Source: Myrmaecium sp. VS I D KN 1
Lineage: Eukaryota > Ascomycota > Dothideomycetes > Valsariales > Valsariaceae
DNA length: 50,708 bases
Assembly: GCA_019775845.1 (NCBI GenBank)
Contig: JADQAV010000074.1
Coordinates: forward strand, 1 to 50,708
Reading direction: 5' to 3'
In this document: one piece after another, positions 19,247 to 44,165 of the stretch
Layout: each line of letters begins with the position of its first letter
Position numbering within the stretch: the first letter of the stretch is position 1
The notes under the pieces: model-generated
Databases searched by the model: none
Told to the model about the DNA's origin: nothing
What the model saw: only the letters and a program-made list of their open reading frames with translations
Translations under genes and position numbers: made by a program

Positions 19247-22200
19247 CTACCGACCCTCACCCCCATCCCTCTCCACCCTCCCCCCACCCCCACCAAACAC
19301 CCACCCAAACACCCCCTTCGCCTTATACAAGTTCACCAGGCGCAGACGCTCGTTGTCCAAATGCGCCGCGTCGCTCGCCTGGCCGACGGGGAGCTGCGCC
19401 GCCGGCGCCCCGAACGCCTTCTCCAGGAAGCGGATGCTGGGGATGCTGCCGCCCTCGCGGATGTACAGCGGCTTGCGCGAGGCGGCCCAGCTCGCGTCCG
19501 ATCCCGAGCTCGCAGCGGCGGCGGCGGCAGGGGGCGCGAGCGTGGGAGTGGCCTCGGGAGGAGTGAGCGTGTCTGTGCTGTCGTCACTCCCGGTCTCCGA
19601 GACGGGCGTGACGGCGCCGCCGTTCGCCAGCGTGGAGCTCGTCGGAGGGTTTTCGGCAGCGCTGGGCGAAGGTGACGGTATCGATCCCGCCTCCGCCTCC
19701 GTATGCGTGCCTCCGGGTACGGCGGAGCTCCGCCGCCTGACGCCGGCGTGCTGGTGGTGGTCGACCCCGCGCACCGGGCCCCACACGTGCATGATGCCCT
19801 CCTCGAGCGTGCGGAAGATCTCGTTGTTCAGGTCGCCGAGCCAGGGCTCCGCGATATGGTCGATCGTGACCGCGAGGCGGTTTTTGCTCTCCAGCGCGGC
19901 GAACTCGCGCTGCAAGAACGCGGTCAGCTGCGCGGCGACCTGGCCCGCGGTTTGGTTGGGCACGAGGCGGAGGGAGAGGGCGGCGCGGGCGAGGCGCGGG
20001 ATGATGGTGCTGTTCTCCGGACCGGATGTGGTGAATCGGTGGATGGTAAGGCTGGCTTCGCGCCAGCGGCGCATGAGGGAGTTGGCGAGGGCGTCGGCAG
20101 GACCGAGCGCTGGGTTGCGCGCAAGTAGGGTGGCGGTGATGTCGTCGTAGAGGGAGGCTTCCTCGGCAGAGAGGGGCAGGATTGGATCGTAGAACCCAGG
20201 GAGCGAGACATGGCCGTGCTTGCCTGTCAACTTGGCCAGCAGCATGACAAGGTCCTTCAGTGATTCGTCCAGTAGCGCCGACCCGTCCACACCCGAATGC
20301 AGGTCCGGATGCGGCGAGCTGATCTCGACGGTGGCGTGGATGACACCGCGCAGTCCGTACGTGAGGCACGGGACGTGATCGTCAAGCCAGTAGCTGTTGG
20401 CCAGCAGTATCCAGTCGACGTCGCCGATGAGGGCCTTGTTCTCGCGCACGGCACGCTCGAAGCCGCGCGAGCCGCACTCCTCTTCTCCCTCGATAAGGAA
20501 GACGATGTCCGACTCGAGGGCCTGCGTGGCGATCAGGTCTGTTACTGCGTAGATGGCGGCCATGATCGGTCCTTTGTTGTCGGAAACGCCGCGACCGTAC
20601 AGGTAGCCATCGATACCTTCGAGTGAGAAGGGGTCGACGATCCAGTTGCCCTGGTCGTTCTCCGCCGCAATTACGTCGTAGTGGCCGTAGAACAAAATCC
20701 TCCGGCGCGGACCCGAGGTGGCTCGATTGGCGCGGAAATGCGCATAGACGATCGGATTGTACGGCTCCTCCGTGTTCAGCATCTCCGTCGTTGCCGCACC
20801 GAAGTTCTTGAACACGGAGCGCAGGTATGACGCGCCCCGCCGACAGTCACCACGGTAGCGCGGATCTGACGAGACGGTCCGGTAGGAGACAAACTTCTTC
20901 AGTGACTCGAAGAGATGTTCTGTAAGCAGATTAGTACACCCTGCCTAACGGTAACATCCGTCATACATACCATTGCTTGTCGCCTTGTTGGCCGCCGCAT
21001 TCGTAGAGCAATCTCGCACATCCCACACCGCGACCGTATCGTCGTTTCCACCCGTGACGAACACCGGAGTACCCTTATGCACAGTGAATGCACTCGCCAA
21101 CACCAAGCCCTCATGCGCCCGAAACCCGGTCACCCTCTCATACATTCTCCCGAACTTCTCCACACAACCATTCTCACCGCCAGCAAAGAGAAATCCCCCA
21201 CCCACACTCAGCGTCAGCACATCTCCGCCATCCGTATTCAGCCTCCTCACCAACTGCTTCGTCTCCAAATCCCACACGTTCACCTCCCCTTCCAAGCGGC
21301 CAGCGTACAAGAACGTCCCATCCAGCGCCAAACTCAACACGCTCTCCCCCTCCTGCTTCTCGTCCTCCAAGCAACACACTTCGTACATCCTCCCCCCATT
21401 CCTCCCATCCAGACCCCAAATCTTGATCGCCCCATCCCCGCCTCCAGAAATCAACACCTCGTCGCTTCCGCTCTCCTGCGGATCCAGCAGCTCCTCCTGC
21501 AAGATGCCCCTCGCAAGCAGCATGCAGTACACATACCCAAAGTGCGCGAACGGATGCGTGTAGCTCTTGTCAATCTCCAGCAGCCGGCCGCCCTTGGCGT
21601 CGCGGGGCTTTTTCGGTTCCTGGGGGCGGGGCGTGCGGTGTCCGCCGGGGCCGGAGGAGTCAAAGAACCGGTCGGCGCGGTAGGAGGGGTGCGTGTGCAG
21701 GGCCGGCAGCGGCCGCACGTCCTTCTCCTTCAGGTCGTACCATTGGATCGAGGTGTTCTGGGCGCCCAGGTAAAGCGTCTGCAGCGAGGAGGAGTAGGCG
21801 GCGCAGAAGATGTCGCCGACGTCGTGCGTGGAGTAGAGGCTGTAGAGGTGGGTGAGGGTGCTGGTAGACCAGACCTACGGCCATGGACGGACGCGCATTA
21901 GCATTTGGCAGGGATGGGAGGTGTGACGCAGAATGTTGCACGGAGGATACTCACGTTCAGGATCCGATCGCCGGCGGTGCTGAAGAGCAGGTCTTGCTCT
22001 GCACTGAGCGTGAGCCCCAGCACGCTCCCTTTGTGACCCTCGATCGTGGCCTTCTTCTCATATGTGTCGAGGCTGTACACGAGGATTTCGCCGCCTTGTG
22101 TGCCTGCGAAGATGTACTCGCGCGAGACGGCCAGGGCTAGGATGGAGGCATTGTGACGCATACGGTGGAAGAGCGCTGGCGTTGCAGCCGGGACCTTGCT

Positions 22201-22260
22201 GCCGGTGGCATCGGCATAGCCACCTTCTGCTACCTGCGGTGCGGAAGACGGGGCGGACAT
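19247..22260 (-). CDS. DUG2: Dug2, WD40 plus M20 peptidase subunit of the glutathione degradosome
   Basis: In yeast Dug2 pairs with the amidotransferase Dug3 to remove gamma-Glu from glutathione in the cytosol. Exons complement(21955..22260), complement(20971..21874) and complement(19247..20919), with introns of 80 and 51 bp, give 960 residues; yeast has 878. WD40 repeats fill about 30-390 (ALAVSREYIFAGTQGGEILVY, ISGGGDGAIKIWGLDG, FVTGGNDDTVAVWDV). The M20 domain follows: ILFYGHYDVIAAE, YLYGRGVSDNKGP, LIEGEEECGSRGF, LTYGLRGVIHATV, SSPHPDLHSG and, at the end, YIREGGSIPSIRFLEKAFGA and QLPVGQASDAAHLDNERL. About 100 low-complexity residues (near 787-885) are inserted right before YIREGG. Another intron (complement(22389..22432), TACTAAACAAC branch) probably lies in the 5' leader. 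The start is chosen because MSAPSS is the first Met before the first WD repeat. Confidence 0.95.
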
Positions 22261-24175
22261 TGCTCTTGTGGTGCTGGCGGTGCGGTTGGTTGTGTTTACG
22301 GTCAATTGCGACAAGCTGGGAATGTGCGTGGTGGTTATCACGGAACGTGCGGCATGCTGGGCTCGAGTCGGAGCGGGTATCGTTGTTTCTGCAAGGATAG
22401 AAGAGTTGTTTAGTACATTTTGCGAGACATACGCAGGCAGCGGTAAAGGAGCAGCAGTGTGAATCGTCAATGGCGTAGGAATATGTGTCGGTGATAGTAA
22501 GAGGAGACCGTGGACCGTGACTCCCGTCTGGCCCTTCGTAAAATCGGGGTGGACCCTGAGACGCCGAGCGATAGCGGCGATGGCGTCAGAAGCCGGGGCA
22601 AGCTGGGTGGACCTGCCTGTCGCTCGGTCCGTCTGCTTGGCAGCTCGGGCAGCGCAACTCAATTCCAACCACCGGGCAGGAAAGGAAAGGAAACCGCCGT
22701 GCTCACCTCGCTCACATCTCCACGGCTGCCGCCGGGGCGGTCGACGGCCGCCGCAGTCCATGTTGTCCCGGTAGCTCGGCCGTCCGAGCCCGCTGCAGGC
22801 GGAAAACCGATGGAGGTGACTGCGGTCGGATGGGCGGAGGAGCGGTCGGCTCAGCGGGCTGATAAGCAGCCCCGGTCTCGCAGGTTCTCCGGCGCCGTCG
22901 TCGACGTTCCTATCATGCTGTCCGCTGCCGGTTATATGGGAATCGCACGTGTGGGAGCGCAGGAAGGGAGGAAGGCAGGTCTCGCGGCGCTCGGGTGCTG
23001 CGGTCAAAGTGAGGAGGTTTGGATCGGGCGGCGTCGCTTGAGGCATGTCGAATATTTATATACGCGTACACCGCCGGTTGCTGCCCTACGCCAATGATCG
23101 CGAGATTGCGATGATCGATATAATTGATGATGACGAGCGAATCCCTCCTGATGGCGATTCTCTAGGTTGTGATTACACGGAAGCATCGAACTCGCCCGTC
23201 TCTGAACCGATTTGAAATTTGTATTCCTCCCGGAGTGCGGTGTCGTGTGTGACTGTAACAGACCAGCTGTGTTCGATCTGCATTTTCCCTCGCCATTTTG
23301 TTCCCGGCTGGTCATGCAGGTACCACGATGTTTCCTGCCGGCCCAACATCTGCAGCGGTGAGGTCGACAGAGGATTTTATTGGATGCCTTATCGCACAGT
23401 ATCCTGCAGGCGGTTTTGGGATTGGCTATACACGTGGCCCTACAGCTGCAGACAGCCACCAATCGTCGGCAAATATCCCGAGACTTCCGCAGCATATAGA
23501 TAATGAGAAAACTCTGCTAAATCTATGCGATAGTTCTGCTGGCTTACGAATGTTGAGAGAGGCATTCCGTTTCGTGAGCAGACAAGGCTGAGTATGACGC
23601 TTCCGCTCCCAAAGCCCTCCCCAGGCCGTACTAGTCGCTGCCTATGACCCACCGGTTTGCCGATTACCGAATGCCTGTTCCGGCTGTTCATCGCGCACCT
23701 TGAAGAGAGCCGCGTACTAAAGACATCTAACGCTTTAATGACGTTGTAGTGCAGGAGATGGAAGCCTCGCAGAACTTACATGTTACTTCTCACAACATAT
23801 GGCGGGTAATCTATATTTCCTTTTTTTCCCCTTACAACACTCCATGCACTGCCTGTCAAGCCTCATCAAGGTTCTATTTGTGAAGTATCCGACGCGATAC
23901 AGACGGAAGCCCCTCCCTAATGCTGAGTACAACTGGCAGTTCATGAGTTTCTGCTAGTATACACGGCTGACATAAATTACCTATTCCATGACCTTAGGTT
24001 GACTGGTTCAGCAATCACGGGTGGCCGCTCGAAACGCAATCGGACTACGTATCTGCTCACTCAACGGCTCTAGCTGAGCAGTCCACAAGCGGTTGCAGCC
24101 GATTACGGATCTTATTTCGCGGTCTAGGTCTGCTAGCTATCTGGTTGACACGTCTTCTGCCAACTCAAACGCGGG
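22261..24175. other. DUG2 upstream region and boundary of the accessory block
   Basis: Holds the long DUG2 leader, with a likely 44-bp leader intron at complement(22389..22432) and a TATA-like TATATAAA on the minus strand at about 23050-23058. Long open frames cross 22510-23097 (+) and up to 23046 (-), but they are compositional and carry no domain. From about 23100 GC falls and only short open frames remain; nothing recognisable in 23100-24175. Confidence 0.55.
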
Positions 24176-24557
24176 ATGAATGATACTTGTATTACCGCTC
24201 TTTCCCAGCCGCTTACCAAGCTCATAAAAGACCGTCTCTACCGCGCCTCTCCCCCCTCCTTTCACCTCCTGTCACCTCCTCTCTCTTCGTCTCCACCCCT
24301 CTCTCGACAGAGTAAGTCTAAAGTCCAACCTCTTCTCTATAATCTGTTCTTAATATCGGATTAATTATTCTATAAGATTTACTAATTTACTTAAGTCTTA
24401 CATCCTCTAAACCTAAGCGACCACCCTCTATTTTAATAGAATATCGGCGGTCTTAAAGCGTAAGTAATAGAAACTAAAATAAAAACTCAAATACTTAATA
24501 ATCCTTCTATTAACCTAAGAAATAATAGGAATTCGAACGCTTATTACCCCTCCAGAG
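24176..24557 (+). promoter_or_regulatory. leader of accessory gene 1 with AT-rich candidate intron
   Basis: A CT-rich leader (24240-24310) ends in CGACAGA, followed by a perfect GTAAGT donor at 24312. CTCCAG at 24550-24555 is a fair acceptor. The 244 bp between are extremely AT-rich with many TpA steps and several CTAA branch-like words. Splicing would join an ATG at 24176 in frame to the next gene, adding 46 residues, or it may simply be a leader intron. The AT-rich segment could also be a RIP-worn insertion that became an intron. Confidence 0.5.
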
Positions 24558-25271
24558 ATGGGTCCTTTGATCCCCCGCGGGGAACGCAGTGAAAAATGCC
24601 AAAAAATCGTTCGGACTGCATTCACCAATATCTGTAATCAATGGGGCGACAACTGGTTCACCGAGCTAGAACACGGACTGAAGCTCGACTGCAACACCAC
24701 GAACGCCGGCAACGTCCTCAACCTGCCGCGAGATCTGCTCAGAGCCCTCGTCACTCTCTCCAAAGACAAGACTCTCGAGGACGCGAGGGCGCTCCTGGCG
24801 GCGCAAGCGCGGACCCGCTACCCCAACTCCCCCCAGACGACGCCGGTGCTGACGCGCACGGATGTGACGAACGTCCTGGACGGCTTCAACTCCCCCTCGG
24901 CTCATACCGCGCCCACGGACATCGATCTCACCGATGATAATGACTCGGACGCGCCGATTCCGCGGCGAGGTCGCCAGCCACATCGGGGTGTTGGATTCAA
25001 CGTTGCCCGAGAGATGCGTGGCCAATCCGGTCCGGATGAGGAACCGGAACGAGATTTGGATCTGGAAGAATTACAGGACCGGAAGGAGCTCCGGAAATTG
25101 GAGATAGAGGAGCTAGAGGATGAAGAGAAGCGCCGGGAAATCCGGCTAGAAGAATTGGACTGCCGCGCGAAGCGGCGGAGAATCAAAAAGGCGGAGATCA
25201 AGGATAGGGCGATCGAGCGACGGTTGTCACGCACCCGTGGCAATCGGAGTAATGTCAGGCCTGAGCTCTAG
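24558..25271 (+). CDS. accessory family member 1: WGxxW domain and coiled coil
   Basis: A single exon of 237 residues (possibly 46 more through an upstream exon, see 24176). I do not recognise a named domain. The N-terminal module covers about 15-110: CNQWGDNWFTEL with WGDNW at 29-33, a helical stretch NLPRDLLRALVTLSKDKTLE, EDARALLAAQARTRYP, and the closing TRTDVTNVLDGF. A linker of about 55 residues is acidic then basic, with PRRGRQPHRG resembling a short GR-type DNA-contacting motif. The last 75 residues are a charged coiled coil (LEELQDRKELRKLEIEELED and on to ERRLSRTRG). Two of the four other family members lie downstream on the same strand. A nuclear role is inferred from the basic motifs; catalysis is unlikely because no conserved polar site is visible. 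Confidence 0.75.
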   Translation: MGPLIPRGERSEKCQKIVRTAFTNICNQWGDNWFTELEHGLKLDCNTTNAGNVLNLPRDLLRALVTLSKDKTLEDARALLAAQARTRYPNSPQTTPVLTRTDVTNVLDGFNSPSAHTAPTDIDLTDDNDSDAPIPRRGRQPHRGVGFNVAREMRGQSGPDEEPERDLDLEELQDRKELRKLEIEELEDEEKRREIRLEELDCRAKRRRIKKAEIKDRAIERRLSRTRGNRSNVRPEL

Positions 25272-26033
25272 GGTGTGCTCTATTCGTGTGGGTGTGAGGG
25301 CTCAGTGCTCTGGGGTTTTGTTCTCGTGTTGCCTTCTTTTCTGTTTCTCTTTCTGTTTTCCTGATAACCCTTCTCCTTTAGTGACGGTGATGGTTCTTTT
25401 CTTGTATGATACCCCTTCTTTATGGCCCTGATACGCAGGGCTTCTCATGCTAGCGTTATCAATCATGTCGGCTTTTAGTTTCTCTTTTGTGGTCTTAGGG
25501 ATGGAAATCGTATTGCCCGTTCTCAAGGAGTCCTTCGATCCTGCCTTTGTACGGATCTAAGCGTATGATTTCGTGCTTCGTCTCACGATGAGTTTCAAAA
25601 TGGCCATGCAGGGTTTCTCGATTAATTCCTACTATGAACTGGCCGTTTTGGTTTGTTTTTTCTTTTCTTCTTCTTTAAATGATTTTCATTGTCTTCAATG
25701 ACATACTACCTAACGAATCGGCATTTGCATTTTCCTTTAATCAGACTGCTTTGCTGTTAGATGTGTGGTCTTAACATGCTAACATGGCCGAGCCAAAGTC
25801 ATAACGTGACACGGACAGGTCAACCTAAGTTGTCAGTAAAGCAAAACTAGATAGCTACAACTCACACCGTTGGCACGGTTGTTTTTCGTCAACCCGTCTG
25901 TTCCTTGGCTACTACTGCAATCCACTCAACGTCAGTACCTACCATCCTTCCGCGCGACATCGCCGTCGATCATACATAGCTGCCAACGACCTTTCTGCAC
26001 GCCGTCGCTCGCTTACGGCCAGCATTTCGAAAC
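25272..26033. other. spacer between accessory genes 1 and 2
   Basis: T-rich 3' flank followed by a promoter region. No gene, repeat or RNA recognised in these 760 bp. Confidence 0.6.
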
Positions 26034-26960
26034 ATGTCGTGCAAAACGTTTGCAGACAATACTCCAGGAACTCAGATCAAAAAGACCGACGCGCTGAGGG
26101 TACTGAATCAGAGATGGGGAGAGGATTGGCACCTGAAGCTCGCGGGCAAGGGCCTGTTGTTGGAACGCTCGAAGCAAAGTGTGTCCGGTGACATCTTGGA
26201 TGCGAGTGAGGTTCAGCTGACGAGACTCAAATGGTTTTCCGTCGAGTTGAGCGGCGGATTTGATCGTGCTGCTGAATACCTGATCGACGCGGTGCGGTCG
26301 AATTCTCCAGAGAGTTTCACAGCGCGTGAGCTAAGAACGGCCGATATCGTTCTCGCCCTGGAGAGGGTAAGGCAAGACATTATCTCAGGCGTTTTACCAT
26401 TTCCGTCGACTAGGAAAATAACAAGGTCAAAAACCCAAATCGGTAAGTTAAACCTCACAGGCCAGTTCAGAATACCTCATCGAACCAGCGGCTCATTCCT
26501 TGTAGGGTCTCATGGTTCTATGCGAACAAGCCCTGGTGCTACAGGTTTGAACGAGAACGAGGTCAGCATTCATCCATCGTGTGGCTCCTTGGCCCAGATT
26601 GCCCAAGACGGTGCGGAGCCACAGCTTTTGAACGCTGAGCAAGCTCCCAAGCAGAGACGGGGGCGTGCTCGTCTCGAAAAGTCGCATGCCAGTGTGGAAG
26701 GCTCTGCAGAGGACGTCGTGACTACTGAGTCACTTTCAGCAACAGAGGAATCTCTAAATAAAGTCCGTCAAAAGCGACAACAACTCAAACACGAGCTACA
26801 AGAACACAAGCAAAGGCGCAAGCAGATGTGGAAGCATATGAAACTCAGGGAAGTTGCGATGAAAACTGAGGATCTGAAGTATAAGCACCTGGAGTTGAAA
26901 CTCAAGAAAGAAATTCTGGGGGCGAAAGCCACGTTGGATACGGAGTCAAGGTCAGAGTAA
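26034..26960 (+). CDS. accessory family member 2: WGxxW domain and coiled coil
   Basis: Unspliced length is 308 residues; a strong intron (26443..26505, GTAAGT...TTGTAG, 63 bp, no stop) would reduce it to 287 without changing frame. The N-terminal module has VLNQRWGEDWHLKLAGKGLL (WGEDW at 28-32), QLTRLKWFSVELSGGFDRA, AAEYLIDAVRSNSPESF and the closing LRTADIVLALERV. The linker carries KQRRGRARLEK. The C-terminal 70 residues form a Lys/Glu/Gln coiled coil (EESLNKVRQKRQQLKHELQE onward). The stop TAA overlaps a GTAAGG donor at 26957. If it is used with the acceptor at 27108, the protein would gain about 56 residues ending at 27280, so the 3' end is uncertain. GC is lower than in the housekeeping genes. 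Confidence 0.72.
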   Translation: MSCKTFADNTPGTQIKKTDALRVLNQRWGEDWHLKLAGKGLLLERSKQSVSGDILDASEVQLTRLKWFSVELSGGFDRAAEYLIDAVRSNSPESFTARELRTADIVLALERVRQDIISGVLPFPSTRKITRSKTQIGKLNLTGQFRIPHRTSGSFLVGSHGSMRTSPGATGLNENEVSIHPSCGSLAQIAQDGAEPQLLNAEQAPKQRRGRARLEKSHASVEGSAEDVVTTESLSATEESLNKVRQKRQQLKHELQEHKQRRKQMWKHMKLREVAMKTEDLKYKHLELKLKKEILGAKATLDTESRSE

Positions 26961-28469
26961 GGCAGAAGGCAAGCTGCAACGGTTCATCACGGCGAAAGGC
27001 TGGAAGCTACGGAAGCGAAGACTGAACGTGGGACTTCGAAAGATAATCCTTGTAGGGCAAATATTTACGAAGGATTACTAGGATCATACGTGGATGGAGA
27101 AAAGACAGTCAAAATCTTTTCGAACCCATCAAGGATACTCATATCAGATCTAAGGCAGACGTATTTTGGATTACCACCGGGATGGGGCTGAGCCCGCGAC
27201 AAGTCGTGGTCAAAGCAACGAGTAACAAAACTCACCGTGTTCAACAGATACTGCTTCTAGCTAATAGATTCAAAGAGTGATTCAATCTGTCTAGAAGTGG
27301 GATCTCACATGCCTGAATGATGAGGGAAGTCTAGGCGACAGTGTGGACATTGTGATTGGGTCTTTGCCCGCTTCAGCTCATTTCATGGAAGAAGTGGATT
27401 TCTTCAACAACCAGACACACTCTCAAAGTACAATGATCAGGCGCATGGTGATGTTATATCAAAGTATGGCCGTGATGAAAAGCACCACGAACACTTGAAG
27501 ACAGATGTTCGGGGTTATGCTTACACACCTACGGGCGTCTCGTTCATTGTCTCCTATGACAGGAGACAAGTCCACATTGCTTTATTGTCTAGCGTTGATT
27601 CAATCAAGAACTGCGATATGGTGCTTGAAAGCACTAAGAGGAGGGAAACACGAAACATGTCCTAAAAGAACCGTGAACTGTTGTTGAGATGGAGATTCTT
27701 GGATGGAGCAACCCCTGGCTAGTTCATGGTCGTCCCACGTTAAGGCGGGGAAATTCGCTAATCACCGTCGTTGATTGATGTTAGCAATGACTCTCTAGGA
27801 CTGCAATCATGCTTGTCTACAGGCGTAAATACATAGCTGAGGGTTTAGTCGATGGGTAGATGGAGTAAACTTATACAGAATGGCTGTGTGGTGACCTTAT
27901 GGTTTTAGACGCAGTAACACCTACCATAAGGTCGGCGCGCTGGATGAACAGCTTAAGCGCCGTTTGGCACTGATGGCTCACATGATCCTCTCGCCAGCCT
28001 GTCCATTGTTGATGAGCTTTGAATCAGGCCCGTGAAACAGCGCTGTACACGTTGGTTACTGATTCTCTGTATACGGTATACTGCTTTAACAACTCAACGG
28101 TGAGCTTGGCTGCGTGCTCTCTTTCAGCAAACAAATACGCCTTGCAGAGCCCTCTGAGAGCATTGTAGACGCGTTTGCAACGCCCATATTACATCGTTTG
28201 ATGATTTACTAGACCAGGCTGATAACAAAACTGCAGAACGCCGTAAGTTGCCGTATACGGTGACATCCCAATGGTTGGTACTGCCGAGCTAATTTTCTCG
28301 CTAGAGCCAAGCAACTTCACCGCGACATCACCATCCCCTTCCTACAACGTAACGCCATCAACAAAACGCTTTACAGCGCGTGAGGATCAATAAAGTGAGT
28401 CGCATCATCTTATTAATTGATTTCTTGCACCTTACAAGCCCTCTCCCGGCAACGTCTGGCGCTGCGCAT
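26961..28469. other. 1.5-kb low-GC spacer with open-frame fragments
   Basis: Downstream of accessory gene 2 two open stretches look more protein-like than chance: 27109-27280 (with ADVFWITTGMGLSPRQVVVK) and 27295-27498 (with CLNDEGSLGDSVDIVIGSLP). Neither has a family match I know, and the frames do not connect cleanly. They may be further exons of gene 2 or remains of a decayed gene. A 10-bp inverted repeat lies at 27894-27932. The rest to the gene 3 start holds nothing recognisable. Confidence 0.4.
27894..27932. repeat. inverted repeat with 10-bp perfect arms
   Basis: ACCTTATGGT at 27894-27903 pairs with ACCATAAGGT at 27923-27932 across a 19-bp loop. It could form a hairpin or be an operator-like palindrome; chance is also possible. 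Confidence 0.5.
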
Positions 28470-29726
28470 ATGCCTCCCAGCAACTCCGCCGCCACCCCAG
28501 AGCTACGCGCCTCCGCGGCGCAGGAGCCCAATAACGAGGGTAATCTGTTCGCCGACTTGGAAGAAAGAGAGAGGAAAATCTGTCGAGGACACATCGCCGT
28601 GATCGATGATGTCTGGGGTAAAGACTGGGCCAAGGACTTTCCTCGCTCCATCCGGCTACCGGGGGTGCCTATCGTGAACTGGGGAAGGACCTGTCTCTAT
28701 CAGCTGTCTCGCCTGTGCAAAGTCGTCGAACTTGACGATGCCATCAGATTGCTGCGCGACAAAGTCTTTGAACGCCTGGAGGACCCACACCGAGATCCAC
28801 GGCGCTTTTTAATCGGCATAGATGTGGACAGCGTGCTGAAAGACCTCAGGCCTAGCTTCAAGGAAAGGCAACGGGCGCGTTATAGGAAGGACATGGACGC
28901 GTTGAACCGCTTTATCGACGGTGACTCCAGCCCTGCGCAAGACGCGAACGAAGAGGAAGAAGACCTGCCCGCCAGGCGCACCAGAGCCAAACGTCAATCG
29001 AATGTCACCGCATCCGCCACGCAGGAAGAGGAGCCAGAAGACACCACCCTAACCGCCGACTCGCCAGCGCCTGACTCCACTTCCAAACGCCCAGCCTACT
29101 CCCTCCGTACCATAGATCGAAAGGACTACCGCACCCCCAAGATCCGTGAATGGAAGCGACAGACCGACGGCGAACCGTCACCGAAAAAATCGTCAACAAA
29201 GTCCACCCCGACCAGCGGCGGACCAAAACGTAAGCAGCCTGCCGCACACCTCTGGTCTGCGCCCGCACGTCCTGCGCCACTTCCGTCTAACCTTTCATCA
29301 GCCTCAGGCACGACAAACGAAGCTACAGCAAGTCCGCCCGAAGCACCCACGCAAAAGCGAAAGAGACGACGTGCAAGCAGCCCCAAGGGTAGGTTACCGA
29401 CCCGGGTCCCCCATCCCGTCCTTTCCGACGCACCAGTGGGAGCACTCACTCAACCCGCCGTAGCGGCCGCCGACGAACCCACTTCCCCAGCCAAAGCTGG
29501 CGCTACCGCGCCCAAACGCCGCGCGCCGCGCAAGTCGCGGGGATCAGACGTCGGCGTCGGGGCGAAGGCTGCGAAGGGGAAGGAGAAGAAGAATGAGAAG
29601 AAGGAAGAGGAAGAGCATGACGGGGCGGTGGTCGAAGATCAGATCCGTGAGGTGGAGCTGGAGCTGCGCGAGGTGCAGTTGCTGCGACGGCTGCACGAGC
29701 TGAAGAGGATGAAGAATGGCGAATGA
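28470..29726 (+). CDS. accessory family member 3: WGxxW domain and coiled coil
   Basis: The start at 28470 (MPPSNS) is preferred; an in-frame ATG at 28380 adds 30 hydrophobic residues that look like translated leader. Unspliced it has 418 residues. Two good in-frame introns, 29230..29301 (72 bp, TCTAACC branch) and 29389..29463 (75 bp, GTAGGT...CCGTAG), would leave 369; neither contains a stop. The N-terminal module shows IDDVWGKDWAKDFPRSIRLP (WGKDW at 49-53), LYQLSRLCKVVELDDAIRLL and the closing FLIGIDVDSVLKDL. The linker of about 230 residues is Pro/Thr/Lys-rich and basic (KRKRRRASSPKGR, KRRAPRKSRGSD), likely nuclear-localising. The C-terminal coil is short and ends in LREVQLLRRLHELKRMKNGE. 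Coding GC is high, unlike gene 2. Confidence 0.75.
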   Translation: MPPSNSAATPELRASAAQEPNNEGNLFADLEERERKICRGHIAVIDDVWGKDWAKDFPRSIRLPGVPIVNWGRTCLYQLSRLCKVVELDDAIRLLRDKVFERLEDPHRDPRRFLIGIDVDSVLKDLRPSFKERQRARYRKDMDALNRFIDGDSSPAQDANEEEEDLPARRTRAKRQSNVTASATQEEEPEDTTLTADSPAPDSTSKRPAYSLRTIDRKDYRTPKIREWKRQTDGEPSPKKSSTKSTPTSGGPKRKQPAAHLWSAPARPAPLPSNLSSASGTTNEATASPPEAPTQKRKRRRASSPKGRLPTRVPHPVLSDAPVGALTQPAVAAADEPTSPAKAGATAPKRRAPRKSRGSDVGVGAKAAKGKEKKNEKKEEEEHDGAVVEDQIREVELELREVQLLRRLHELKRMKNGE

Positions 29727-30941
29727 GAGTCCGGTGGTGCTACATACCCTGAGAAGGATGAGACAGTGAATCGGAATATGTGTAGATTCTGTTCCGCTGC
29801 CATGCCTAAGGGTCAGCGGGGGTGTGCTTTCCTTTTCCACTACTTGGGGGTTGATGTTTCCTCGTGTCTTAAAGGTCACAAGTCCTTTTCCTCAGGCCCT
29901 TTCTACCGGTAATATTATTTCTTTCCGTCTCATATTCTCTGCTATCCGCAGCAATGCATCGGTCCGATATTTTCACGGGGACAAGATCAGGCTTGTCACG
30001 CTTTTAAAGATCAATTCTATAGGAAGAAAACTCCTAATGGCCCAGGCAAGGCTGCCATACACACCCGTTTTATCTTAACGGTAACATGGGACTGTACACA
30101 AGTGCCCCTTGACATGAGGCGGCGCGGTTATCCCTTCCTCCATGATCCTTTGTTCGGCTCGTGTTACCCGACCGCCCCTACTACTTTGCAGACACAATGG
30201 TATTCGTTAAGCGCGTGGAGTCTTACATTTCTGAACTAGAAAAGACATGAGATTTCCGACAATGTCCTCACAAAGCGGTAGACAAGCGTATGATTGACGG
30301 GCAAGGCCGCTTTCATGCACAACCCATTGCGCTTGGTAGATCGCTGGCAGACAGCACCTCGGGAGAGAAGAGTTGGACGGAGAGATGTGAGTATCACAAC
30401 TGTATTAAGACCTGAAAAAGAAAACCATATCGGCGTTGGGGGATCGGGGTGGCGGTTAGACATCGATGTAATGGCGAGCGATGAATAAGCGAACGAGGAC
30501 CGGGGAAAGTTGGAGATTCAGAGCTGACCTTCACGTACATCGTCGTTGAGGATGGATCGGCATCTGGAACGCCACCATATTTAAAGTCATTATCACGAAG
30601 CACGGCAATAATAGCACATTCAAGCATCAAGTAATCGTATTTCATTCGAACTAATATAAGGTATGGCGCGAAAGCCCACCATGGTTTCTCTGCTAACCCT
30701 CCTCATACAGGGAGACGGCTATGTTAGCCCGATGTGCAGACGTGGCGCAGCGCGCAGTGGTATGTTTCATTCCCAAAGCTCCCAAAGAGAAACCCATCAC
30801 TCCAGAGAAGAGGAAAAAGAAAAGATGAGAATGAACAGAAGAAAAAGAAAAGAGGAGCACTATAGCTTGCGCGACCCAACGGCGACGCAACCTGTCATCC
30901 ACCAACATCACCTCGCTCGGGCGTGTTGGGAGTTCGCCGTC
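29727..30941. other. spacer between convergent accessory genes 3 and 4
   Basis: 1.2 kb. Apart from a possible small spliced minus-strand gene (30207-30645, listed separately) I see no gene. Around 30790-30860 a purine-rich A/G tract precedes the 3' end of gene 4. Confidence 0.5.
30207..30645 (-). CDS. possible small spliced gene, unsupported by family
   Basis: Exon complement(30539..30645) starts MKYDYLMLECAIIAVLRDND and ends at a GTACGT donor. Within the intron are a GTCTAACC branch-like site and a TTTTCTTTTTCAG acceptor; using the next acceptor, 12 bp on (ATACAG), gives a second exon complement(30207..30399) that stays open to a stop for 99 residues in all, with seven Cys. The first acceptor gives only about 37 residues. 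Splice signals are good but no homologue is recognised and there is no signal peptide. It may be chance. Confidence 0.2.
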
Positions 30942-32522
30942 TTACTGGGCATTGGACCCGGAGTGCTGGCGCTTGAGCTTCAATGCTCGAATCTGGTCGT
31001 CAATATCTTGAATCTCCTGGCGCCGCCGCTGACGAAGAGCCCGGAGCTCCTTCTCTTCTTGCGCTATTTGCTCCCGGATACTCTTAGTCGCCTCGCTGGG
31101 TGCATCCTTGGTGGGGAGGTTGTCGCTCGTATCGACCTCCATTGCCGCTGGGGGAGCCGGCTTAGGCAGGATGGGTACGTGAGACCGGGGCCTGTGCGCA
31201 TCTTCCCACTGCTGGAGCCTCGCGCGGGCGATCTCGTCAGTCTTGGGTGGGATTTGTCCGGGCAGGAGGTAGCCGGCTGGGTTAAGGCCGCCGGGCCCGT
31301 AAGGGGAGTCCTTTGATAACTGAAAGGGTGACTGCGCCGCAGGTGACATCAGGTATGGGGATGGCGCGACGGAAGAGGTCGCCGTGGTAGCGGAGAACAC
31401 GGTTCCGACGGATGATTCGCGTTGCTTCTCGGCATCCACCATATTGGCAAGCTGTATGTCGAGCTTGCTGGGTTTAGGACGTCCGGGAGCCTTGGACTTG
31501 GTGACTCGAGAACCACGAGCGACAGTGGCCGCGCTATTCTTCTTCTTCAGACTGGCAGCACTGGACTTGCCTTTGACGTTTGAGGCGCTTGACTTCGCAC
31601 TCAACGTGCTCGTCTTCTTGGCGGGTTTCTTGAGTTTGCTGACACTGAGTGAATTGCCAGGCTTCTGTCTCTCGTCGAATCCGCTCAGCTCACGAAGATA
31701 GCGGTTCCACTGGTTTTTGACGGCGGGGGCAGACTTTGCGATGCCGGCCGTCGCCATTCTCTTGGAGACGCGCTCGAAACGCTTCTCGATGCCGCCGGTG
31801 GCACCATGATTTGGTTCTAGGTAATAAGTCTTCAACATAGCTTCAATGCAAGCGAAATTCTCCGGACTGCTCCAATCGTTCACGACAGAGATCTTGAGAC
31901 CTTTCATGGCTTGTTCTATTTCAGGTTCCGTCATGTTGACAGGACGCGGGATGAAAGGAGACGGTGAGGTCTGTTCACGCGTCTCCAGCTCAATCTGCTC
32001 CGAGGATTGCGGCTTGGGAGCCTCGAAGGATCTCTGTGGACGTTCCTTGGGGGGAGTCGCATACTTATGGTCGAGCTCATCGTAAGCAATGGCTGCACTA
32101 CGATTGTTGGGACCTCTAAGGGCGTAAGCGAACGGCTCCGGTGAGTGTGCAGCACGTCGATGCTTACTGAGTTGTTCGCTTTCGCCGAAGTAGTCCTCAA
32201 ATACTGTTTCAAGATCCTTTTCGGTAACGTATTGGGCGCCATCAGACGAGGCGCGTTGACGTTCTTGAATTGCAAGGCTGACAAGCTCCGCTGCATCACG
32301 GACGCGGTTAGGGGCAAGTTCGGCCAGATGCCCTAGGAGTCTTAACATGGTGAGCGGAAGCTCGATTAGATCTTCCTTCTTTTCAACGTTGACCGGTAGC
32401 ATGGCCTTAGCGATGAAATCGGCAAACCACTTACTGCCCCAGTTGCTCGAGATCTTTTCCACTAGGTCTAGCTTTTGACGATGAGTCGTCTTCATCCTTC
32501 CGGCAAACGACAGGGAAGACAT
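30942..32522 (-). CDS. accessory family member 4: WGxxW domain, Myb/SANT-like domain and coiled coil
   Basis: A single exon of 526 residues from the Met at 32522; an in-frame upstream Met (32645) would add a His/Tyr-rich stretch encoded by a 9-bp repeat, probably leader. WGSKW is at residues 28-32 (LVEKISSNWGSKWFADFIAK), then ELPLTMLRLLGHLAELAPN, RDAAELVSLAIQERQ and the closing YVTEKDLETVFEDYFGE, so it has the same module as its neighbours. Residues of about 215-293 add a Myb/SANT-like fold: NDWSSPENFACIEAMLKTYY, KRFERVSKRMATAGIAKSA and VKNQWNRYLRELSGFDERQK, the last close to a signature of fungal Myb-type DNA-binding domains. A Lys/Ser-rich stretch with TKSKAPGRPKPSK (AT-hook-like) follows. 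The C-terminal 45 residues are a coiled coil (AQEEKELRALRQRRRQEIQD). DNA binding is a fair inference for this member. Confidence 0.8.
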   Translation of the reverse strand: MSSLSFAGRMKTTHRQKLDLVEKISSNWGSKWFADFIAKAMLPVNVEKKEDLIELPLTMLRLLGHLAELAPNRVRDAAELVSLAIQERQRASSDGAQYVTEKDLETVFEDYFGESEQLSKHRRAAHSPEPFAYALRGPNNRSAAIAYDELDHKYATPPKERPQRSFEAPKPQSSEQIELETREQTSPSPFIPRPVNMTEPEIEQAMKGLKISVVNDWSSPENFACIEAMLKTYYLEPNHGATGGIEKRFERVSKRMATAGIAKSAPAVKNQWNRYLRELSGFDERQKPGNSLSVSKLKKPAKKTSTLSAKSSASNVKGKSSAASLKKKNSAATVARGSRVTKSKAPGRPKPSKLDIQLANMVDAEKQRESSVGTVFSATTATSSVAPSPYLMSPAAQSPFQLSKDSPYGPGGLNPAGYLLPGQIPPKTDEIARARLQQWEDAHRPRSHVPILPKPAPPAAMEVDTSDNLPTKDAPSEATKSIREQIAQEEKELRALRQRRRQEIQDIDDQIRALKLKRQHSGSNAQ

Positions 32523-33375
32523 TGTTAAGATTCTGCATAGAAGCGATGCTTGCACTTGAAAGTGGTGGTAGTGGTGGTAGTGGTGGTAGGATGGTTGAGA
32601 TCTTGGAAAGCTGAAGTTCTTGGAGTGGTGGTGTGGAAGAGACAAGTTGGTGAGAAATGGTTGCAGGGTGTGATCGAAGTAAGAACGAGTCCGCGTATTT
32701 CAAGGCCAGCCTTCTTCGGGTGGAATATCCTGAGCACCGATTCGCTCAGATTTTCTCACCGACTTTAAACAAAGCAAACGGGGAACTTCAAAAGTTAGTA
32801 AAAAGCATGTGATGTCGTCCTGTTACCGCTTAGGGTGCCTAACTAGGGTTGCACTCCGCAAGGCCAATATCGCAGGGTGAACGGATGGAGGATCCCTTGA
32901 GAGGTTAAACAGTGACGTTAAGGAAACCGAGTAATAAGTAACTTTAGAGACTATCCCATGCAGAGAAACTTGAAAGAATGAAGAAGCCTTTGACTGAAAT
33001 GGATTCAGGATGTAGAAGTAAAATGCTCGACCACCCAGTCGTTCGTAAATTAGGAAGATTTCGAAGCTCCAATTTCGCCACTTCCGCTTCGTCACCGCCT
33101 CTCATCAAGCCAAACATTCTCACCAATCATTTGTTTACTTATCTCTTCTCCGACCGTCCCTGGTATCCTTTTGCGGACCAGATCGGACGCAGCAAGCGCA
33201 ACTCTGCCATGAGCAAACCCAGGAATCTTCCGATGTAATAGTGAAATGAAGCTGCTCCCTCTCCGTCAAGCAGAGCCCATAAGTTTCTTATCTCTCCATA
33301 CTAAGCAGATCGCTGACATTCTTGCATCCCACTTATTGATTTATTCGCATCCAGACCGCATCTGCAGCTCCGTCG
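32523..33375. other. promoter of accessory gene 4 and 3' flank of gene 5
   Basis: Contains a 9-bp unit (GTGGTGGTA) repeated three times at 32562-32588 just before the gene 4 start. No gene recognised; short open frames at 32823-33238 have no domain. Confidence 0.55.
32562..32588. repeat. three copies of a 9-bp unit in the gene 4 leader
   Basis: GTGGTGGTA is repeated three times in tandem, 40-66 bp upstream of the preferred ATG of the minus-strand gene. Confidence 0.8.
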
Positions 33376-34592
33376 CTACTTCGCATTACCCAGCTGTTTC
33401 AGACGGCTTTTGATTCTCCGTTCCTCCATCGCATCCTTTAGGTCTTCCATTCGCAGACGCCGAAGCTCCTTCTGGTTTTCCAGCTCGAAAAGTCTGTCCT
33501 CAAGCGTACATTCTCGTCCTGCACAGAAGAAGCACTCTCCGCTTGGTACTCTGGCGGTGGATCGCTATCCGGCGTTGCAGATCGTTGCTGCACAGGAGCG
33601 AGAGGCCACGATTTTGCATTGCCTGGGTCATGCGAGCCTTCTTTAGGCTGTTGACCGATAGATGTATTAGCGGCAGATCGCGATTCCGTAGTATGAGCAG
33701 AAACCGGCTGTACAGCATTCGGAATTGGCCTTACTGGCTGAGCACCAAGGTCCGAGGGCCCACGAAGGAACGTATCAGGAGCAGGGGAAGGTGGAAGAGG
33801 ACAAAATTGAGAAGAGTGCGGATGGGAATCGGGGGCAACGGCAACAGCGTTCGAACCATGGGGATTGTTCGACTCGGCGGATTGCTCCTTATTACTGTTG
33901 CGCACCGTGGATGTTTCATGCGAGCTTCGATTGCGGACGAGTGCATCTCGACTCGGGCCGTCCTTAGCCCCGTACCGTTTTTTCTTCTGGTTGTGCATCG
34001 TATTTGTTCCTCTCGTGCGTGGGATAGCAGAGGCCACTGAGGGCAAACGATCAGAAAGTCGAGGCCCCTTCGGCGGCACTTTTTGACTTCCGTTCGACAT
34101 CGATGCTTCGAGTTCGGGCGGGCTATGGCCCTGCTTCTGTGCGGCCTCCGTGGTGCTGACTGAAGCGGAAGACATATTCCCGGGTTTAGAGGCAGCGAGC
34201 TTTCCAGTGGGCGCACGACACCCCCAGTCACCCGCTTTGACTCGATGTATCGCGCGACGGAGATCATGAATAGTCAAGAACTTGTCAGCTTTGGGTTTGC
34301 TCTCCTTCCGTCGCTTGACCTCCTGCTGAAGGGGAAGGATAACTTCTTCAAGTTTTCCTTCCGTTTTCATTGCTAACGATCGGAGCAGTTTCCACAGTGT
34401 ATGGCCGAGAAGCAAAGTGCACTTCGTCTTGTCGAGCGTGTACACCACCTTCACTTGAGAACAGAGCTTCAGCTCCCACTCTTTTCCCCATTTAGCGAGG
34501 ATGTCTTGTTGTTGCTGCTGCCTATGCCGGTGTTCCTGCGTAGTCTCGGGTTCTTTGTTAGATACCATGCTCTCTTGGGACCCACTGCTCAT
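33376..34592 (-). CDS. accessory family member 5: WGxxW domain; coiled-coil end in another frame
   Basis: One frame runs from 34592 for 384 residues to a stop at 33438. The N-terminal module is present: QDILAKWGKEWELKLCSQVK (WGKEW at 35-39), LLLGHTLWKLLRSLAMKTEG, EVILPLQQEVKRRKESK and the closing FLTIHDLRRAIHRV. A long Ser/Pro/Asn-rich linker follows. The expected C-terminal coil exists but in a different frame: from about 33490 to a stop at 33376 it reads LEDRLFELENQKELRRLRME and on through ERRIKSRLKQLG. I looked for an intron to join the two and found only weak donors (a GTCAAC before the good acceptor TTCTGTGCAG near 33497). So this copy is either spliced unusually, carries a recent frameshift, or contains a sequence error. 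A TATA box lies about 100 bp upstream. Confidence 0.65.
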
Positions 34593-35455
34593 TCAGGACC
34601 GAATGCAGGTGAATGGAGTTGATAGAGTAGTAATTCCAGTGGGGGAAAGGCAGGTGGAAAGAGGATGAGAGAGCATAAGAGAGAGGTAGAGTTTATATAA
34701 TCAGTGCGTCTGAAGCTTCTGACAGGGACAAGGGGTGTACTTCAGAAAGCAAACAGCGTTACTTCAAGAGTGACCGGGATCTTTCACAAACTAGCATGAT
34801 AGAAGTCAAGGTGGATATGTAAGAAGAGCCGATGGACAAAAATGAAATATTTTGAATGTGACTTGACGGTTCCTAACTGACTGAAAGAGCAAAAGAATCA
34901 GGCGAAAACAGATAGACGACATCGCAACTGTGAGCATTGGTCGAGAAGAAGAAAGATGAGACTTGGTCAACATGATAGCAATGACGCGAATTGGTCGCTG
35001 TTATACCGACCTCATGCATTGCAGTACGAAGTAAGTGATGAAGTCCAAGTCCAATAACCGCGGAAATATCGGGAAAAGACGGCTGAACACGTGTCATCGG
35101 GCTAGCTTGGCCCAAAGATCCTCAGGCAGAAACATAGGTTTTACGGAAGGCATGAAGTACGATAACCTGAGGCACGAACTTGGCACGGACACATCCCAAC
35201 TTTTTACGCGGGACATGAACATGACCGATTAACCACCGCCAGCATCAGCACCCCGACGATTCGCCATCCACCACCCACCGTCACCCAACCACCACGGCCT
35301 CCCCTTCAATCCTAAGATTCGCGAGCAAACCGTCGCTCTCTTAGTCCTCCCGCTACCGTCCGAGCTACGTGCAGGCAGCCTTCGCCGCGCTCGCCGTCAC
35401 CTCTTCCGCCTCTCCGTAGCCTTCGTCTCTCCCTCTCACAACCTCCACCGTCACC
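34593..35455. promoter_or_regulatory. divergent promoter region, accessory gene 5 / TIM17
   Basis: TTATATAA at 34693-34700 is a well-placed, palindromic TATA box for the minus-strand gene 5. Near TIM17 the DNA turns CT/CCACC-rich (35230-35450), a typical housekeeping leader. No gene seen between; this is the right edge of the accessory block. Confidence 0.5.
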
Positions 35456-36183
35456 ATGGTCGACCACTCAAGAGATCCCTGCCCCTGGGTCGCCCTCAGC
35501 GACTTTGGCGGTGCCTTCTGCATGGGCGTACGTCCTCCTTGCCATCCTCCGCATTCTCTCAAAAACATGACACCTCCGCTAACCCAACCCTCCTCCAGGC
35601 CATCGGTGGTGCCGGTAATCTCTCCCTCCCGCACCCGCAAAGCCCCGTCCGGACACTAACAACGCAACCGCAGTCTGGCATGGCGTGAAAGGATTCCGCA
35701 ACTCCCCCTACGGCGAGCGTCGCATCGGTGCCATCACCGCCATCAAGTCCCGCGCACCCGTCCTCGGCGGTAACTTCGGCGTCTGGGGCGGTCTCTTCTC
35801 CACCTTCGACTGCGCCGTCAAGGGCATCCGCAAGAAGGAGGACCCGTGGAACGCCATCATTGCCGGTTTCTTCACCGGTACGTTCGCAGCCTACATGAGA
35901 AACGACCCCGACTCCCCAATACCCCGTCCCACTGAGTCCGAAGGAAAGAAGTATCTTGCACTGACATAACATGTCCCCCCATATAGGTGGTTCCCTCGCC
36001 GTCCGTGGCGGTTACAAGGCCGTCCGCAACGGCGCCATCGGCTGCGCCGTCCTCCTCGCCGTCATCGAGGGCGTCGGCATCGGCTTCCAGCGCATGATGG
36101 CCGAGAACACCCGACTGGACATGCCGCCTCCGCCGCCGCCGCAGGTCGACGCCGGCGCCGGCGCCAAGGCCGCCGTTGCGTAA
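35456..36183 (+). CDS. TIM17: mitochondrial inner membrane translocase subunit Tim17
   Basis: Core subunit of the TIM23 complex, which moves presequence proteins across or into the inner membrane. Exons 35456..35527, 35599..35614, 35674..35877 and 35987..36183 give 162 residues, near yeast's 158. Exon 2 is a 16-nt microexon that supplies AIGG within [20 protein letters not shown]; without it the first membrane segment breaks. Introns are 71, 59 (CACTAAC branch) and 109 bp. The N-terminal [18 protein letters not shown] has the family's DPCPxR/V-like opening and acidic residue, and [38 protein letters not shown] and [20 protein letters not shown] make the remaining Tim17 membrane segments. The tail is Pro/Ala-rich. 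Secure. Confidence 0.97.
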
Positions 36184-37298
36184 GAGAACATTCGAGCGTG
36201 CAATGGGGGCTGTCGTGATCTATGCCGCGAAGTTGCTGGGAAATGATATCATGGGGATTGGATTCGCAGCGGAGCGCTGGTCTCCCGGGTCGCGGATCAC
36301 GGTGCATTGAGACGCCGCTTTTTTTTCCCTTCTCTCCGCTACTTCCTCTGCGATGTTGTCCGGGGCTTTCCCTTGGTGGGGTTCTTTGATTTTCTTTTTC
36401 TCTTTTCTCTTTCTTTTTCTTTCAGCGCGGTTTTACGCTGGACTTCATGCGGTTTTGCAGAAAAGAAATCTCTCCTCCTTGTTTTTTCTATTTCCTTGTT
36501 TCTTGAGTCGATTCTGGATTTGGCTTGTGGGAGGGGGAACAGGTTGACGCAGCCCTCCTTTCATTGGCAGTGAGGTCAGGGTGACTCCGTGGGAAGAGCG
36601 GCGGGGCCGGCAGCCGTGTGAATGAAAAAGGAGGAACCTTCCGAGCCGTATGTGCTCGGGCAGTCCGCCGTTTGTACATTATCTCATAAGAAGGAAAAAG
36701 ACAGACGGGCGTGCGGGCCGACCGCAGCGGAGGACGAGATGTGAGGGACCCGAGGCGGGGATTGTATGATCTGTATGTATAGTACGAACGGTAGCAGGAG
36801 CATTAGCATCAGGTGAAAAGAGAGCCATGATATGTTTCACCATACGTCGTTATGTACGTCGTTCTTCATCTTTTCCGCTCGGTCAAATCGGAAGAGAGAG
36901 CTGGAGAGAAGAATAAACCCTTATGGTATGATACTATGGGAAGGAGACAATGCAGGAATGATCTCATCATATGTACGGTTGGTGTACTGTATGTATGGAT
37001 GCATAGTATACGTTGATATGCTCATGATATCCCCTCCCTCGTCATCATCGGTGTAGTAGTCACCGTGGAAAGCAAAAATGATAAAGCACACAGAAAACAC
37101 AAAGCTCGCCTGCTAATATGATCACTTGAGAAAAAGACAGAAAAGAGAACGTGTCAGAAACAAGGAAAGACTGCCGCTCGGAGGACAGAAGAAGAAAAAG
37201 AGAGAGAGAGAAGAAAGGGGCAATGCACCGAGCGAAGCAATTTACCTCCGCATCCTCCGTCCCTTGCCTCCGCCCTCCCTCCCTCAGCCTCCATCCCG
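36184..37298. other. spacer between convergent TIM17 and BTB genes
   Basis: T/C-rich 3' flank near 36310-36430 and an A/G-rich stretch near 37130-37225. No gene, RNA or repeat recognised. Confidence 0.6.
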
Positions 37299-43344: not shown

Positions 43345-44165
43345 GCGTCAACGGTGAGGCTGTAAAGTTTCATAGCGATGACTAACTGTTTGACGGTGAG
43401 GACGTAAATTACCGCTTTTGGATAACCTGTGCCAAGCCCCTCTCCCATTCACCCGCTCGATTTCAATTAAATTCATTACCTCTTCTTCAGCCTCAAAAAA
43501 CGCCATTCTTTCACCGTCAGAAACTGAAGCTGTAAACTTCTCTCGCGATGACTAGCCGTTTAGCGGTGGAGAATGTAGATTACCGCTTCTGGTAGGGCTA
43601 CTAGGAGTGAAAATGCCAGGTCATGATCATCTTTCTGTTTAACGATGGTGAGGGAAATTACCGCTTTTGGACGTGGCAGGATGCTAGGTTATTAGGTTGT
43701 TAGGTTGCTAGAATGCTAGAATGCTAGGTTGCTAGGTTGCTAGAATGCGAGGCCATAATCTAGATATGCCAGGTCATGATTATCTTTTTCATGCGCCAGG
43801 ATGCCAGATCATGAGTCCATGACCGTCTTTCAGTTTAATACCTAGTCGCGAGGGAATTTACCGCTTTGGCCGAGGCTGGAATGCTATTCAGGAGGCTTGA
43901 ATTGCCAGGTCGTCACCATCTTCCTGCCAGTTCAACGCTGTGGAGAGGAGATCACCACTTTCAGCAGGGCTCCTAGTAGTAGAAATGCCAGGGTGTGATC
44001 ATCTTTCTGTTCAACGGTGAGTACGTGAAATTACTGCATTTAGAAGCGCCAGGATGCGAGGTTGCTAGAATGCTAGGTTGCTAGGTTGCTAGGTCATGAT
44101 ATGCCAGGTTATGACCATCTTTCTGTTTAACGGTGCGGCTGGGAGATTACCGCTTTTGGACGATC
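43345..44165. repeat. degenerate interspersed repeat array with ATTACCGCTTTTGG core
   Basis: Seven copies of a block, roughly TTTAACGGTGAG-N-ATTACCGCTTTTGG, with cores at 43408, 43579, 43657, 43857, 43951, 44030 and 44146; copies 1, 3 and 7 share the full 14-nt core and the rest differ by a few bases. Spacing is irregular (78-200 bp). Five are preceded by a second block, ATGCCAGGTCATGATCATCT and variants. Between them lie short runs of GCTAGGTT and GCTAGAAT units (43682-43752 and 44058-44092). All copies point the same way. It is not telomeric and not coding. Confidence 0.85.
43682..43752. repeat. GCTAGGTT/GCTAGAAT octamer run
   Basis: Eight-base units alternating between GCTAGGTT and GCTAGAAT, about eight in a row with slippage. 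A shorter run recurs at 44058-44092 within the same array. Confidence 0.85.

What the first reader, a model, noticed from the sequence alone, without database searches (positions are those of the whole stretch)
24176..34592. Cluster of five divergent genes sharing an unrecognised WGxxW domain, linker and coiled coil
Five adjacent genes (24558+, 26034+, 28470+, 32522-, 34592-) share the same layout though they are barely alike overall. Seen directly: each has W-G-x-x-W near residue 28-50 (WGDNW, WGEDW, WGKDW, WGSKW, WGKEW), a Leu-rich helical stretch, an alanine-rich or leucine-rich helix, and a closing segment of (F/Y)-L/V-T-x-x-D-L/V-x-x-V-L type (LTRTDVTNVL, LRTADIVLAL, LIGIDVDSVL, VTEKDLETVF, LTIHDLRRAI). 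After it come a disordered basic linker and a charged C-terminal coil. I know no named family with this pattern. The block lies between conserved DUG2 and TIM17, and none of the other genes in the window has the motif. Inference: a rapidly diverging local family of nuclear, possibly DNA-linked, multimerising proteins; candidates include strain-specific recognition or a selfish locus.
Basis: partly seen in the sequence, partly recalled or inferred. Interest (0 to 1): 0.87.

Follow-up and report, generated by a model that had tools for sequence, protein, structure and literature searches.

The report
Five diverged fungal genes, shared domain
A stretch of fungal DNA holds five neighbouring genes that look unrelated at first sight but share an unnamed helical domain at the start of their proteins, so they are most likely old duplicates that drifted far apart; what they do is not known.

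Summary
The core observation holds. Five neighbouring genes (24558+, 26034+, 28470+, 32522-, 34592-) carry homologous N-terminal modules of about 110 residues with invariant W-G-x-x-W, one Leu and one Asp. Profiles built from any four recover the fifth as the best other hit among 755 six-frame ORFs (E 1e-10 to 0.0016; best decoy 0.097). The second gene depends on the motif: with it masked, E is 5. Modules are 16-26% identical, without detectable DNA similarity. Pfam gave no match near its cut-offs for the modules. AlphaFold gives a compact helical module; its best, non-significant fold hits are AAA+ ATPases, and a sequence test of AAA-lid membership failed. Linker and coil are less shared than claimed: only genes 1 and 5 have alignable coils, and gene 5's coil is in another frame. 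New: gene 4 has a sub-threshold Myb/SANT-like domain. Best reading: an old tandem family of probably nuclear multimerising proteins, gene 4 being the DNA binder. Allorecognition or a selfish locus is neither supported nor excluded; no fungal genomes were available.

The parts
24558..25271 (+). G1, 237 aa: module, short acidic linker, C-terminal charged helix
24588..24893 (+). G1 module (about aa 11-112), WGDNW at aa 29
25062..25253 (+). G1 C-terminal helix (aa 169-232), mean pLDDT 96-97 over aa 171-220
   Evidence: similar to G5 coil
26034..26960 (+). G2, 308 aa: the member whose homology rests mostly on the WGxxW motif
26058..26378 (+). G2 module (about aa 9-115), WGEDW at aa 28
26730..26933 (+). 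G2 C-terminal coil (about aa 233-300); heptad score reached by 17 of 2000 shuffles
28470..29726 (+). G3, 418 aa: module, long basic linker with a KRKRRR cluster, short charged C-terminal segment
28560..28853 (+). G3 module (about aa 31-128), WGKDW at aa 49
30942..32522 (-). G4, 526 aa: module, Myb/SANT-like region, linker, charged coil
32178..32507 (-). G4 module (about aa 6-115), WGSKW at aa 28
31671..31880 (-). G4 Myb/SANT-like (Myb_DNA-bind_4) region, aa 215-284, below Pfam's cut-off
30957..31088 (-). G4 C-terminal charged coil (aa 479-522); heptad score reached by 123 of 2000 shuffles
33438..34592 (-). G5 listed ORF, 384 aa: module and low-complexity linker; its last residues are probably not the real end
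34239..34535 (-). G5 module (about aa 20-118), WGKEW at aa 35
33376..33504 (-). G5 coil in another reading frame; alignable with G1's coil (0 of 500 shuffles)
24101..24600 (.). AT-rich stretch with RIP-like dinucleotide indices, immediately upstream of and just into G1 (context, not part of the genes)

Best explanation
An old, locally duplicated fungal gene family. Each protein begins with the same helical module of about 110 residues (long helix, W-G-x-x-W turn, helix, two-helix hairpin, closing helix around the invariant Asp), followed by a low-complexity linker and a charged C-terminal segment. SHOWN: common descent of the modules (weakest for G2) and their clustering in one block. INFERRED: the module is a protein-protein docking domain through which family members pair with each other or with a common partner; the C-terminal helices add multimerisation; the proteins are nuclear; and G4, with its Myb/SANT-like region, supplies DNA binding while the others act as partners or competitors without one. 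That is, a small transcription- or chromatin-type network of paralogues.
For: Leave-one-out profile recovery 5 of 5 and 0 of 2000 shuffles each. Both models show a compact module with corresponding helix order (8 or 9 of the 10 ten-residue blocks over aa 11-110 at pLDDT 70-91; pTM 0.66 for the G4 module). G1 C-terminal helix mean pLDDT 96-97 over aa 171-220. Myb_DNA-bind_4 in G4: E 0.006 whole protein, 3.2e-4 for the region, and not matched by any of 5 shuffles of that region. Basic clusters in the G3, G4 and G5 linkers. G1 and G5, at opposite ends of the block and on opposite strands, share coil as well as module.
Against: The two models were made from nearly the same five-row alignment, so their agreement is not independent. 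Fold hits are not significant (best E 0.22). The Myb match is under Pfam's cut-off and seen in 1 of 5 members; the G3 and G5 linkers show none. Coils are not alignable in 9 of 10 pairs, and the heptad pattern is not above shuffles for G1, G3 and G5. G1 and G2 have no basic cluster. Masked G2 is not recovered. No expression, interaction or localisation data.
Confidence: 0.4

Rival explanations
1. An ordinary lineage-specific family of Myb/SANT-type transcriptional regulators in which four of the five lost (or one gained) the DNA-binding domain; no self-pairing network and nothing conflictual.
For: Myb_DNA-bind_4 region in G4; disordered linkers and charged coils are common in such proteins (own knowledge).
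Against: The shared part is the module, not the Myb region; no Myb match in the G3 and G5 linkers.
Confidence: 0.3
2. A polymorphic recognition locus (allorecognition, mating-like, or spore-killer type): modules of different strains pair or fail to pair and trigger incompatibility, and the divergence is driven by balancing selection.
For: Five very unlike paralogues in one block; N-terminal helical module followed by linker and charged tail; G5 may carry a frame break, as expected under gene birth and death.
Against: No Pfam match at curated cut-off for any of the five, and none of the weak matches is a named incompatibility or killer family; no comparison between strains was possible; seven literature searches listed no such locus.
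Confidence: 0.12
3. Remnants or domesticated products of a transposable element whose accessory DNA-binding protein was duplicated.
For: A Myb/SANT-like domain plus coil resembles accessory proteins of Harbinger-type elements (recalled); a RIP-like AT-rich stretch lies directly upstream of G1; one 18-nt inverted pair, 83% complementary, has arms at 25215-25232 and 35321-35338.
Against: That pair is short and imperfect and one arm lies inside G1's coding end, so it is likely chance; no other inverted repeat of 18 nt or more was reported for 22500-35600; no transposase-like ORF noticed by eye in the ORF list; no DNA similarity between copies.
Confidence: 0.08
4. Chance: unrelated disordered proteins picked out because of one short motif.
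For: With the motif masked G2 is not recovered (E 5); the weakest module pairs are reached by 20 (G2-G3) and 62 (G3-G5) of 1000 shuffles.
Against: Leave-one-out results, 5 of 5; masked G1, G4 and G5 still at E 6e-4 or better, and G3 at 0.022.
Confidence: 0.04

Closest known systems
AAA+ C-terminal lid / small alpha-domain (proteasome Rpt subunits, Lon SSD; also DNA polymerase epsilon subunit B N-terminal domain)
   Same: For the G4 module the first 13 of 50 listed PDB rows are proteasome or proteasome-activating ATPase entries, one of them (3kw6) a lid-type domain alone. The G1 model lists Lon SSD (row 2) and Pol epsilon B (row 34), though its first row is a replisome subunit. A closing T-x-x-D-hydrophobic helix is alike.
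   Different: No hit is significant (E 0.22 at best); profile-profile probability 0.33%, and 6 of 100 column-shuffled controls score higher; no ATPase domain; long extra N-terminal helix and WGxxW.
Myb/SANT-like DNA-binding proteins (Pfam PF13837, Myb_DNA-bind_4)
   Same: G4 aa 215-284 aligns with profile positions 2-71 of 89.
   Different: 21.5 bits against a curated cut-off of 27; in one of five members only; the shared module does not match this family.
Fungal mating-type HD proteins and allorecognition loci (recalled, no call)
   Same: Layout only: an N-terminal helical pairing domain ahead of a DNA-binding or disordered part.
   Different: No homeodomain, HET or NACHT match listed for any of the five (E up to 10).

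Membership tests
Local paralogous WGxxW family | Module of each member recovered by a profile of the other four | tested here: met
   5 of 5, E 1e-10 to 0.0016, best decoy 0.097; G2 only through the motif
Local paralogous WGxxW family | Homologous C-terminal coil in all members | tested here: not met
   1 of 10 pairs above all 500 shuffles
AAA+ lid (Rpt type) | Sequence-profile similarity to known lids | tested here: not met
   hhalign probability 0.33%; 6 of 100 shuffled controls higher; no AAA entry among the 3 PDB sequences matched by the profile at E up to 10
AAA+ lid (Rpt type) | Same fold | tested here: inconclusive
   Foldseek probability up to 0.90 but E 0.22 or worse
Myb_DNA-bind_4 | Score above curated cut-off of 27 bits | tested here: not met
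   G4 region 21.5 bits, E 3.2e-4; whole protein 17.4 bits
Myb_DNA-bind_4 | Present in the other members | tested here: not met
   no such match in G1, G2, G3 or G5 or in the G3 and G5 linkers alone
Fungal allorecognition locus | Multi-allelic or presence/absence polymorphism between strains | not testable with these tools
   no genome held for the window and no fungal collection offered
Fungal allorecognition locus | Known incompatibility domain | tested here: not met
   Pfam scan of five proteins, E up to 10
Harbinger-type transposon accessory protein | Terminal inverted repeats | tested here: inconclusive
   one 18-nt, 83% complementary pair at 25215-25232 and 35321-35338, one arm inside G1
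Harbinger-type transposon accessory protein | Transposase gene nearby | tested here: inconclusive
   none noticed by eye in the ORF list of 22000-37000; only the five family ORFs and the Tim17 ORF there were scanned with Pfam

The most novel reading that the evidence does not exclude
The block is an unrecognised polymorphic recognition or drive locus whose specificity lies in a new helical pairing module, with paralogues that pair selectively with each other and with alleles from other strains.
Probability: 0.1. Interest if true: 0.8.

Novelty: new variant of a known kind. Interest (0 to 1): 0.42.

Why it matters
An unnamed domain shared by five adjacent genes at 16-26% identity shows how duplicates can become unrecognisable to ordinary annotation. 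If the module pairs selectively among paralogues, the block would be a small natural system for studying how interaction specificity diverges after duplication; if it is polymorphic between strains it could be a new recognition locus.

Tried and rejected
Relatives elsewhere: single-protein scans of IMG/VR viral contigs with all five proteins (G4, G1, G3, G5, G2) and of bacterial/archaeal genomes with G4 only confirmed none; this says nothing about fungi, which these collections are not meant to cover. PDB sequence search with the module profile: 3 hits, best E 1.2. PDB sequence search with the Myb-like region: 0 hits. Viral structure library: 0 matches at E 0.001 or better. AAA-lid membership by sequence: rejected. 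Transposon origin: one short imperfect inverted pair and three short purine-rich direct-repeat families only. Literature: seven searches answered, seen as listings with abstract starts only, gave nothing on this family; the one listed paper I opened (PMC3731230, two passages on DUG2, one of them in the reference list) concerns the homology of a Neurospora gene with DUG2 and germling communication, not this locus. The RIP-like stretch upstream of G1 has no convincing second copy in the window (best other match E 0.019 over 62 bases). The RIP indices flagged 19 of 505 windows, several of them G+C-rich and probably noise.

Full report
OBSERVATION. The five ORFs exist as stated: G1 24558-25271+, G2 26034-26960+, G3 28470-29726+, G4 32522-30942-, G5 34592-33438-. 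A MAFFT alignment of the modules has five invariant columns, W, G, W, L and D. BLASTP among the five gives G1-G4 1.8e-5 and G5-G4 1.5e-5, in a database of only five sequences. The ORFs are unspliced models; 9 intron-like matches in G2-G5 were not evaluated.

TEST OF COMMON DESCENT. Profiles of four modules were searched against 755 six-frame ORFs of the window. The fifth was the best hit outside the training set in 5 of 5 runs: G1 1e-10, G4 7.5e-10, G5 8.2e-9, G3 1.5e-4, G2 0.0016; the best decoy of all runs had E 0.097. For each member 0 of 2000 shuffles reached the real score. Module limits were chosen by eye from all five sequences, a mild bias. With the five motif residues masked, G1, G4 and G5 remain at 6e-4 or better, G3 falls to 0.022 and G2 to 5, level with the decoys. 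Of 10 module pairs, 3 had no shuffle of 1000 reaching the real score (G1-G3, G1-G4, G4-G5), 5 had 1 to 3, and the weakest were G2-G3 (20) and G3-G5 (62). Identity is 15.7-25.5%, and blastn at E 0.01 found no DNA similarity within 23001-35600. So the family is real, with G2 the least secure member. No sixth member was found among the window's ORFs (best other E 0.93).

OTHER PARTS. Of 10 coil pairs only G1-G5 is alignable beyond shuffles (score 75, 0 of 500). A heptad pattern is above shuffles for G2 (17 of 2000) and marginally G4 (123 of 2000), not for G1 (581), G5 (702) or G3 (1554), so some may be single charged helices rather than coiled coils. Linkers are rich in P, S, T, Q, N and G (40-51%), with net charge -4 (G1), +4 (G2), +17 (G3), +18 (G4) and +7 (G5). 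G5's coil is out of frame with its module; an intron without a canonical donor or a frame break are both possible. G4 has a Myb/SANT-like region at aa 215-284: E 0.006 in the whole protein, 3.2e-4 alone, 21.5 bits against a cut-off of 27; none of five shuffles matched that family, though one shuffle matched an unrelated family at E 0.12 and the real region another at 0.22, which shows the noise level. The modules themselves gave only two weak Pfam matches in one member each (TPR_16 0.045, P311 0.054).

STRUCTURE. AlphaFold2 with five-row alignments gives for G1 helices 12-29, 33-40, 50-55, 58-70, 73-87 and 100-111 in the module and 169-232 as the coil (mean pLDDT 73.5, pTM 0.40), and for the G4 module helices 6-28, 32-40, 57-69, 74-91 and 101-124 (mean pLDDT 76.0, pTM 0.66). 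The helix order corresponds along the alignment, but the two runs used nearly the same rows. Against the PDB there were 0 matches at E 0.001 or better for either model. For the G4 module the first 13 of 50 listed rows are proteasome or proteasome-activating ATPase entries (that the matching part is the lid is my inference; row 6, 3kw6, is such a domain alone); probability up to 0.90, E 0.22 or worse. A direct profile comparison with six proteasome lids failed (probability 0.33%; 6 of 100 column-shuffled controls better). The module thus resembles a small helical docking domain of lid type but is not shown to be one.

SURROUNDINGS. An M20-peptidase ORF (19247-20944-) and a WD40 ORF (20945-21874-) fit DUG2; a Tim17-family ORF lies at 35688-35969+. 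The block is lower in G+C (0.49-0.56 in 2-kb windows) than much of the window, with GC3 0.54-0.69 in the five genes against 0.70-0.87 in six other ORFs. A RIP-like AT-rich stretch lies at 24101-24600. The organism is a fungus, probably a filamentous ascomycete, by gene content and RIP-like traces; this is my inference, not a call.

EXPLANATION. I favour an old tandem family of probably nuclear proteins whose module docks protein partners, with G4 as the DNA-binding member (confidence 0.4 for the mechanism; I would put the family itself at about 0.9). A recognition or selfish locus remains possible (0.12), but nothing found here points to it specifically, and divergence alone cannot tell fast from old.

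Noticed in passing
window 33376-33504, minus strand: The C-terminal coil of the fifth gene is in a different frame from its module and still resembles the first gene's coil; splice or frame break unresolved.
   Followed up: partly
window 13601-14200 and 24101-24600: Two short AT-rich stretches with RIP-like dinucleotide indices; the one upstream of G1 has no convincing second copy in the window.
   Followed up: partly
window 11875-12035: 51-bp tandem repeat, 3.2 copies, inside a long minus-strand ORF (11290-13323) without Pfam match at E 0.001.
   Followed up: no
window 43678-43743 and 44051-44094: Two arrays of the same 8-base unit AGGTTGCT about 300 bases apart.
   Followed up: no
window 26216-26476, minus strand: An ORF antisense to G2's module is the best decoy with several family profiles (E 0.097 at best); probably chance.
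   Followed up: no
window 25215-25232 and 35321-35338: An 18-nt inverted pair, 83% complementary, 10 kb apart, one arm in the end of G1 and the other beyond G5; probably chance.
   Followed up: no
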